Shown: one piece after another, positions 494 to 1,288 of the stretch
How positions within the stretch are numbered: position 1 is the stretch's first letter
Layout: the number at the start of each line of letters is the position of its first letter
Source of the DNA: Buchnera aphidicola (Diuraphis noxia)
GTDB taxonomy: Bacteria; Pseudomonadota; Gammaproteobacteria; Enterobacterales; Enterobacteriaceae
DNA: 64,000 bases
Assembly: GCF_001700895.1 (NCBI RefSeq)
Contig: NZ_CP013259.1
Span: 310,001-374,000 of the forward strand
Reading direction: 5' to 3'
The notes under the pieces: model-generated
What the model saw: the letters and a program-made list of their open reading frames with translations, nothing else
Database searches by the model: none
Told to the model about the DNA's origin: nothing
Translations under genes and position numbers: made by a program

Positions 494-1288
494 CTAAATA
501 CAAAATTTTCTTATTTTTTCAGTAATTAATCTAATAATTTTTGGGCTGCTAGTTAGATTTCCAGAATGACAGTTATTGTTTTCATGTCCTCCTGTAAAAT
601 TACTAATTAAGCAACCCGCTTCTCGAACTTGTAATTTTCCTGCTATAAAGTTACTAGGATCTAAATTAAAATCAAATAAACAATCTATTCTTCCAGCTGC
701 AACGTAAGCTAGATTTAATACATTTGATCCAGTTGATCTAAAAGAAATGCCACATAAAATTAATTTTTTATATATTTCAAGATAAGAAAATGATTTATCA
801 TAAATACGGTTAGGTAAATTAACAGCAATTGTTGTATGTTTTAAATTATTAATATTACTACATCTTGCTCTATATCCATTTAATTGAGATCCTTGTCCTT
901 TTACAGCAGTAAATAAATCATTTCTTATAGGATCATATATTACAGAAATTTCTATGTTTTTTCTGACAATAACAGCAATAGAAATACAAAAATATGGAAA
1001 ATTTTTTATAAAATTTTTTTTTCCGTCTAATTCATTAACAATCCAAATAGTAGTTTTATCATTATTTTTCAATGCAAAATTTTCATTCTTATTTAAAATA
1101 ATATGATGCGGATAAGATTTATAAATAATTTCACTGATTATTCTAAATGTTTTATACATAATATTTTTTATAAATATTTGATTCTTTTCTAAATCTTCTT
1201 TGAGAAATTTTTGTGTATCATAATTTTGAATTATAATATTTCCTCCTTTTCTTACTGCACGAATAGCAATGTTTAACATGGGATGCAT
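494..1288 (-). CDS. suhB: SuhB-like inositol monophosphatase family protein with degraded active site
   Basis: A 264-residue protein (E. coli SuhB 267) that aligns end to end: it starts MHPMLNIA, has YDPIRNDLF and GQGSQLNGYR in the middle and LAYVAAGRID and VREAG near the end. In the family, Mg2+ is held by Glu67, the DPLDGT motif (Asp84, Asp87, Thr89) and Asp212 or 213. Here Glu67 is Lys67, DPLDGT reads NELDGK (residues 85-90), and the WDFAAGE motif reads SNFIAGK (212-218). Only the second Asp of the motif remains. Phosphatase activity is therefore doubtful. In E. coli SuhB also joins the Nus factors in rRNA antitermination, a role reported not to need catalysis; keeping that role is my inference. 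A Shine-Dalgarno AGGAA sits about 6 nt before the ATG. Confidence 0.93.
   Translation of the reverse strand: MHPMLNIAIRAVRKGGNIIIQNYDTQKFLKEDLEKNQIFIKNIMYKTFRIISEIIYKSYPHHIILNKNENFALKNNDKTTIWIVNELDGKKNFIKNFPYFCISIAVIVRKNIEISVIYDPIRNDLFTAVKGQGSQLNGYRARCSNINNLKHTTIAVNLPNRIYDKSFSYLEIYKKLILCGISFRSTGSNVLNLAYVAAGRIDCLFDFNLDPSNFIAGKLQVREAGCLISNFTGGHENNNCHSGNLTSSPKIIRLITEKIRKFCI

What the first reader, a model, noticed from the sequence alone, without database searches (positions are those of the whole stretch)
494..1288. SuhB keeps its fold but has lost its phosphatase metal site
Four ligand positions are changed together (Glu67 to Lys, the DPLDGT motif to NELDGK, WD to SN) in a full-length, otherwise well-aligned protein with no stop. 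Neutral decay would not spare the rest. E. coli SuhB also acts with Nus factors on rRNA transcription, where catalysis is reported unnecessary. This looks like natural separation of the moonlighting role from the enzyme.
Basis: partly seen in the sequence, partly recalled or inferred. Interest (0 to 1): 0.75.

Follow-up and report, generated by a model that had tools for sequence, protein, structure and literature searches.

The report
Phosphatase-dead SuhB kept for rRNA transcription
In this aphid symbiont a well-known bacterial protein, SuhB, has lost the metal-binding residues it needs to work as an enzyme but is still kept intact by selection, and the same is seen in nearly all small-genome relatives examined that still carry it, which suggests that its second job, helping RNA polymerase make ribosomal RNA, is the one that cannot be lost.

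Summary
Confirmed and widened. The minus-strand ORF 1288-494 is a full-length SuhB (40% identical to E. coli SuhB) with E67K, D84N, T89K and D212N: three of four acidic metal ligands and the catalytic threonine are gone; D87 stays. All 36 genomes held for the genus (36/36) lost two or three ligands, yet keep a 256-269 aa ORF under purifying selection (omega 0.07-0.13). In 63 SuhBs from 39 other small-genome genera of the family, 63/63 lost at least one ligand (61 two or more); 61/62 sampled large-genome relatives keep all four. The paralogue CysQ, same fold, keeps its ligands in 60/60, including 57 genomes whose SuhB is dead, so the loss is specific to SuhB, not AT-drift. NusA with AR2, NusB, Rho and boxA/boxC-like signals before 16S rRNA are retained in the window's genome. 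Best reading: a pseudophosphatase kept as an rRNA antitermination/ribosome-assembly (Nus) factor, with catalysis retired in several lineages separately. Activity and binding are untested; two published contact or dimer residues (L254, R184) have changed, so the interface may have shifted. I found no report of this in nine literature searches.

The parts
494..1288 (-). suhB, 264 aa, full-length SuhB/IMPase-fold protein without a complete metal site
1088..1090 (-). codon 67, AAG (Lys) where E. coli has E67, a metal ligand
   Evidence: (sequence)
1034..1036 (-). codon 85, AAT (Asn) = E. coli D84, a metal ligand
1025..1027 (-). codon 88, GAC (Asp) = E. coli D87, the one metal ligand kept
1019..1021 (-). 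codon 90, AAA (Lys) = E. coli T89, the catalytic threonine
650..655 (-). codons 212-213, AGT AAC (Ser-Asn) = E. coli W211-D212 (D212 is a metal ligand)

Best explanation
Buchnera SuhB is a pseudophosphatase. It keeps the IMPase fold of SuhB but should not be able to hold the catalytic Mg ions, because E67, D84 and D212 and the catalytic T89 are replaced. It is retained by purifying selection for SuhB's non-enzymatic role, as a subunit of the rRNA transcription antitermination complex (with NusA, NusB, NusE, NusG, S4) loaded on boxA/boxC, which resists termination and aids rRNA folding and 30S assembly. Once host-restricted lineages no longer needed the phosphatase, common G-to-A changes of AT-rich genomes (GAA to AAA, GAT to AAT) removed the metal site in several lineages separately while the rest of the protein stayed under constraint. 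Shown here: loss of the site, constraint on the rest, recurrence, the CysQ control, retention of NusA, NusB, Rho and the rRNA signal. Inferred: absence of activity, and which function is under selection.
Against: No measurement of activity or binding. The AR2-contact residue L254 is T in 27/36 Buchnera (K251 is K/R in 36/36), and R184 (linked to the dimer state; recalled as linked to RNAP binding) is poorly kept (0.14). Nine genomes with a dead SuhB lack NusA AR2, so AR2 binding cannot be the only reason for retention. Against acidic invariant positions alone the active site is not significantly worse kept in Buchnera (p = 0.14; other small genomes p = 0.008). suhB is lost in Calaphidinae + Phyllaphidinae Buchnera (PMC11188193 Table 2 passage), and 11 of 80 small genomes gave no SuhB. 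The NCBIfam SuhB equivalog model scores 254.6, below its cut-off of 332.
Confidence: 0.77

Rival explanations
1. Slow pseudogenisation: suhB is on its way out, and the metal site is simply the first visible damage.
For: suhB is listed as lost in Calaphidinae + Phyllaphidinae Buchnera (PMC11188193 Table 2 passage), not found in 11 of 80 small genomes, and a broken fragment in G129.
Against: 36/36 ORFs of 256-269 aa in the genus, omega 0.07-0.13, lower than CysQ, and an altered motif that is itself conserved across the genus.
Confidence: 0.07
2. The protein is still an enzyme with a changed metal or substrate requirement, using D87 and the new lysines.
For: D87 is kept in 35/36 Buchnera, and K67, N84 and K89 are themselves conserved there.
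Against: In other lineages the replacements differ (K, N, I, Q, A, T, S at 67; I, K, S, L, V and others at 89), and D87 is itself often lost (kept in 0.57 by genus mean), which does not fit one shared new chemistry.
Confidence: 0.06
3. SuhB is kept for another non-enzymatic role (scaffold or RNA chaperone for 30S assembly, or RNase III balance) rather than antitermination as such.
For: Nine genomes keep a dead SuhB without NusA AR2. PMC6614801 (discussion section) reports the proposal that the complex serves rRNA folding and assembly more than termination control. Contact residue 254 has changed in most Buchnera.
Against: Genomes with AR2 keep SuhB more often (60/63 against 9/17; p = 1e-4 by genome, 0.08 by genus); boxA and boxC are kept.
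Confidence: 0.25

Closest known systems
E. coli SuhB (Nus factor SuhB / inositol-1-monophosphatase; PDB 2qfl, 6ib7, 6ib8, 6tqn)
   Different: Three of four metal ligands and the catalytic Thr replaced; contact residue L254 and dimer-linked residue R184 changed.
CysQ, 3'(2'),5'-bisphosphate nucleotidase, in the same genomes
   Same: Same IMPase fold family and ancestral metal site.
   Different: Keeps its four ligands in 60/60; an ordinary enzyme by motif.
Pseudoenzymes that evolved repeatedly, e.g. fungal Dis3/RNase II pseudonucleases (PMC8097288; title and start of abstract seen)
   Same: Catalytic residues lost while the fold is kept for a binding role, more than once.
   Different: Here a bacterial Nus factor; the loss goes with genome reduction within one bacterial family.

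Membership tests
Inositol monophosphatase family as a fold (PF00459) | Sequence above the curated Pfam cut-off | tested here: met
   123.4 bits against cut-off 27
Active inositol monophosphatases | Complete metal site E-E / D-P-[LI]-D-G-T / W-D | tested here: not met
   K-N / N-E-L-D-G-K / S-N in the window
Active inositol monophosphatases | Mg-dependent phosphatase activity | not testable with these tools
   needs a purified protein
SuhB (orthologues of E. coli SuhB) | Best match to SuhB rather than to CysQ, HisN or other IMPases | tested here: met
   best NCBIfam model PRK10757, 254.6 bits, against 91 or less for the others, CysQ 50.2; best PDB match E. coli SuhB; a separate cysQ in G000
SuhB (NCBIfam PRK10757 equivalog) | Score above the curated cut-off of 332 bits | tested here: not met
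   254.6 bits: a diverged orthologue, not a formal member of the equivalog
Nus factor SuhB of the rrn antitermination complex | SuhB fold | tested here: met
Nus factor SuhB of the rrn antitermination complex | Partners and RNA signal present in the genome | tested here: met
   NusA incl. AR2 and NusB in G000, boxA/boxC-like sites; NusE, NusG and S4 were not searched
Nus factor SuhB of the rrn antitermination complex | Published AR2-contact residues K251 and L254 | tested here: inconclusive
   K/R251 in 36/36; L254 replaced in most Buchnera, T in 27/36; effects of single changes unknown
Nus factor SuhB of the rrn antitermination complex | Binding to NusA, RNA or RNA polymerase, and antitermination | not testable with these tools
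   needs biochemistry

The most novel reading that the evidence does not exclude
Across host-restricted enterobacteria SuhB has been converted repeatedly into a dedicated, metal-free Nus factor. In Buchnera the old Mg site was not merely lost but re-fixed, with lysines (67 and 89) standing where Mg sat and pinning the fold in the form that assembles on rRNA-transcribing polymerase, so that any metal-dependent switch of the enzyme is gone.
Probability: 0.2. Interest if true: 0.75.

Novelty: new variant of a known kind. Interest (0 to 1): 0.64.

Why it matters
A 2016 study of E. coli SuhB left open whether its rRNA role is connected to its phosphatase activity (PMC4807359, one section read). This is a replicated natural separation-of-function experiment: 40 genera of small genomes (Buchnera included) carry SuhBs without a full metal site while a paralogue of the same fold keeps its site. 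It makes the question directly testable (complementation of E. coli suhB by dead symbiont genes), points to residues that may matter for the transcription role (such as R141, kept at 0.99 by group mean in dead SuhBs and in 6/6 dead ones outside the family, though live ones keep it too), and makes 'inositol monophosphatase' annotations of such proteins suspect.

Tried and rejected
Sequencing or annotation error: rejected, 36 of 36 genomes of the genus agree. AT-pressure alone: the codons now found are the AT-rich neighbours of the old ones, but CysQ in the same genomes keeps its ligands, 60/60. My first CysQ set (40) leaned to the better-scoring matches; I therefore fetched the 20 left (13 Buchnera, 7 others): one of them (G129, 28% identical to E. 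coli CysQ) may not be CysQ proper. Loss of Rho as the reason for SuhB loss: rejected, Rho in 80/80. AR2 loss driving SuhB divergence: not supported with NusB identity as yardstick (p = 0.17), and the presence/absence association weakens to p = 0.08 by genus. Counting independent losses: the SuhB tree (81 rows, active-site columns left out, quick method) needs at least 5 changes, but starred branches force only 2; only SuhBs of 46% identity or more were used, so Buchnera is not in it. A boxA pattern search over the whole genome gave no excess over its control (13 against 27 hits); only position before the rRNA genes is informative. Promoter scan: no excess, no terminator. A passage on Sodalis glossinidius genome size gave nothing useful. 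Not tested: large genomes with weak SuhB scores (e.g. G104, G181, G208, G225), because the 62 large-genome sequences were taken from the upper part of the score list; further small genomes of genera already sampled (e.g. G190, G277, G278, G280, G292, G294, G308, G311, G316, G321); NusE, NusG, S4; boxA in 5 of 35 genomes with a 16S match; expression.

Full report
OBSERVATION. The stretch 494-1288 holds a 264-codon ORF on the minus strand, between the C-terminal part of topA (plus strand, ends 476) and rlmN (1453-2547), followed by ispG, hisS and glyA (names by my reading of the translations). It aligns over residues 1-259 with E. coli SuhB. E. coli numbering is used below; metal-ligand roles (E67, D84, D87, D212; T89 catalytic) are recalled IMPase knowledge. 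The window protein has K67, N84, K89 and N212 and keeps D87.

BUCHNERA. All 36 genomes held for its genus have a suhB match covering at least residues 1-260 of 264. The ORFs as read are 256-269 aa; the stops reported in L017, L022 and L024 do not shorten them below that. 35 of 36 have lost three of four ligands and one has lost two. The altered site is itself conserved: N84 in 34, E85 in 35, L86 and G88 in 36, D87 in 35, K89 in 33, K67 in 31 of 36; W211 by contrast is among the fast sites (90th percentile). Codon models give omega 0.068 (GY) or 0.125 (MGK) for 36 sequences. On the same 20 genomes and one tree SuhB has 0.069/0.132 and CysQ 0.093/0.177. Synonymous sites are probably saturated over the genus, so the numbers are guides; fixing omega at 1 (with kappa fixed at 2) costs 1526 log units. 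The protein is therefore not decaying freely.

BEYOND BUCHNERA. In 295 genomes of the family 286 have an IMPase-family match (some matches are CysQ only). I searched 77 of them, chosen for small size (0.2-1.8 Mb), again with E. coli SuhB: 73 match, of which two (G129, G134) have only CysQ-like matches or a fragment, leaving 71 SuhBs, all fetched. Of 63 from 0.3-1.2 Mb genomes (39 genera) 63 have lost at least one ligand, 61 at least two; of 8 from 1.4-1.8 Mb genomes 7 have lost two or three and one (L064) has lost none of the four but D44. That these are symbionts is inferred from size, except where named below. Of 62 large-genome SuhBs (2.2 Mb or more, from the upper part of the score list plus E. 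coli K-12) 61 keep all four; the exception, L235, has E67K alone. Eighty named Enterobacterales records, including Sodalis and Symbiopectobacterium, keep all four (80/80). The replacements differ between lineages, as expected of separate losses; a SuhB tree without the active-site columns needs at least 5 changes, with only 2 forced by well-supported branches. Outside the family, of 30 small genomes (0.9-1.6 Mb) of the class that I picked from 369, 6 have clearly degenerate sites (L359, L362, L363, L364, L367, L368) and two more differ only at D212 (L345, L346); two of the 30 (L369, L370; 24% and 21% identity) may not be SuhB.

NAMES. Contig lengths of G165 and G264 equal those of Blochmannia turneri (749,321) and B. 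pennsylvanicus (791,654) in Table 1 of PMC4389277 (passages). If the last two are right, E67K in G138 against an intact site in G039 (96% identical, 66 synonymous and 10 nonsynonymous codon differences) catches the first step.

CONTROL. CysQ has the same fold and ancestral site. I fetched CysQ (or the best CysQ-like match) of 60 genomes: all 33 of the 36 Buchnera that show one, and 27 others. All 60 keep the four ligand residues; 57 of these genomes have a SuhB that lost ligands, the other three being G071 (SuhB ligands intact), G129 and G134 (no SuhB). In the first 40, identity to E. coli CysQ averages 53%, so CysQ is diverging too, but not there. This excludes mutation pressure as a sufficient cause. 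Within SuhB, of 150 positions nearly invariant in large-genome relatives, six of seven active-site positions rank 129-142 in retention (D87 ranks 77; Mann-Whitney p = 6e-4). Against acidic positions only, the test gives p = 0.14 in Buchnera and 0.008 in other small genomes; many other acidic positions changed too.

TRANSCRIPTION CONTEXT. G000 has one 16S and one separate 23S gene. A boxA-like site lies 113 nt before the 16S start motif used and another 64 nt before the 23S match (11 of 13 positions each). In 30 of 30 16S leaders read (of 35 genomes with a 16S match among 36) a boxA-like site (11-13 of 13) lies 93-128 nt upstream and is followed by GTGTGGGCAC (30/30), which I recognise as boxC (recalled), in otherwise variable AT-rich sequence. 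NusA is full length in the window's genome; its AR2 is 51% identical to E. coli (AR1 58%), and 49-58% in eight further Buchnera-like NusAs read, there equal to or above AR1. NusB gives a match in 77 of 80 small genomes (broken or split in a few, e.g. G129, G134, G244), NusA in 79, Rho in 80. Among these 80, SuhB is present in 60 of 63 with AR2 and 9 of 17 without (p = 1e-4; by genus 33/36 and 6/9, p = 0.08).

MECHANISM. From PMC6614801 (abstract, an introduction passage and two sections): E. coli SuhB binds the rRNA signal and NusA AR2, is needed for stable NusB/E in the complex, counteracts Rho-dependent and intrinsic termination, and its phosphatase activity is not needed for the suhB phenotype. 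The simplest account is that symbionts, whose rRNA units still carry boxA/boxC and whose genomes keep NusA and NusB, keep SuhB for that, while no need for the phosphatase remains. PMC2649895 (passage) left Buchnera suhB out of the metabolic model as not connected to biomass. Against a simple carry-over: the double change of K251 and L254 lowers AR2 affinity more than a thousandfold in E. coli; L254 is T in 27/36 Buchnera and R184 is poorly kept, so the contact has shifted or AR2 binding is weaker.

NOVELTY. Nine searches, among them suhB with Buchnera, with pseudoenzyme, with endosymbiont/Blochmannia and with catalytically inactive, listed no paper whose title, abstract start or passages seen report SuhB's site loss in symbionts; the library lacks most subscription papers, and I read only the passages named. 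A 2006 paper assigns a Blochmannia protein (Bfl535) to inositol metabolism as a monophosphatase (PMC1360075 passages); I could not tell whether it is SuhB or CysQ. PMC11188193 lists suhB as lost in Calaphidinae + Phyllaphidinae Buchnera (Table 2 passage). PMC11481867 lists suhB among ancestrally essential Enterobacteriaceae genes (passage).

VERDICT. That SuhB can act without catalysis is known for E. coli; the new part is that nature repeated the experiment in nearly every reduced genome examined that still carries the gene.

Noticed in passing
L235 (G138), SuhB residue 67: A genome with a 4.17 Mb contig (by recalled size Sodalis glossinidius) has E67K as its only ligand change, while a 96% identical relative (L223) is intact: a likely first step of the loss.
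   Followed up: partly
G087, G094, G126, G136, G157, G165, G198, G216, G219, G221, G231, G245, G259, G296, G304, G317 (nusA): NusA matches end before the AR2 domain in these 16 small genomes; SuhB was not found in 7 of the 16.
   Followed up: partly
G129 (1.2 Mb): suhB shows only as a 42-residue fragment with a stop and the NusB match contains four stops, while NusA is full length: possibly a recent joint loss.
   Followed up: no
SuhB residue 141 (E. coli numbering): R141 is kept at 0.99 by group mean in dead SuhBs and 6/6 in dead SuhBs outside the family, and is rare in CysQ (0.10): a candidate contact for the transcription role; live SuhBs keep it too.
   Followed up: partly
L359, L362, L363, L364, L367, L368: Six SuhBs of small genomes outside the family also have degenerate metal sites (6 of 30 examined).
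   Followed up: partly
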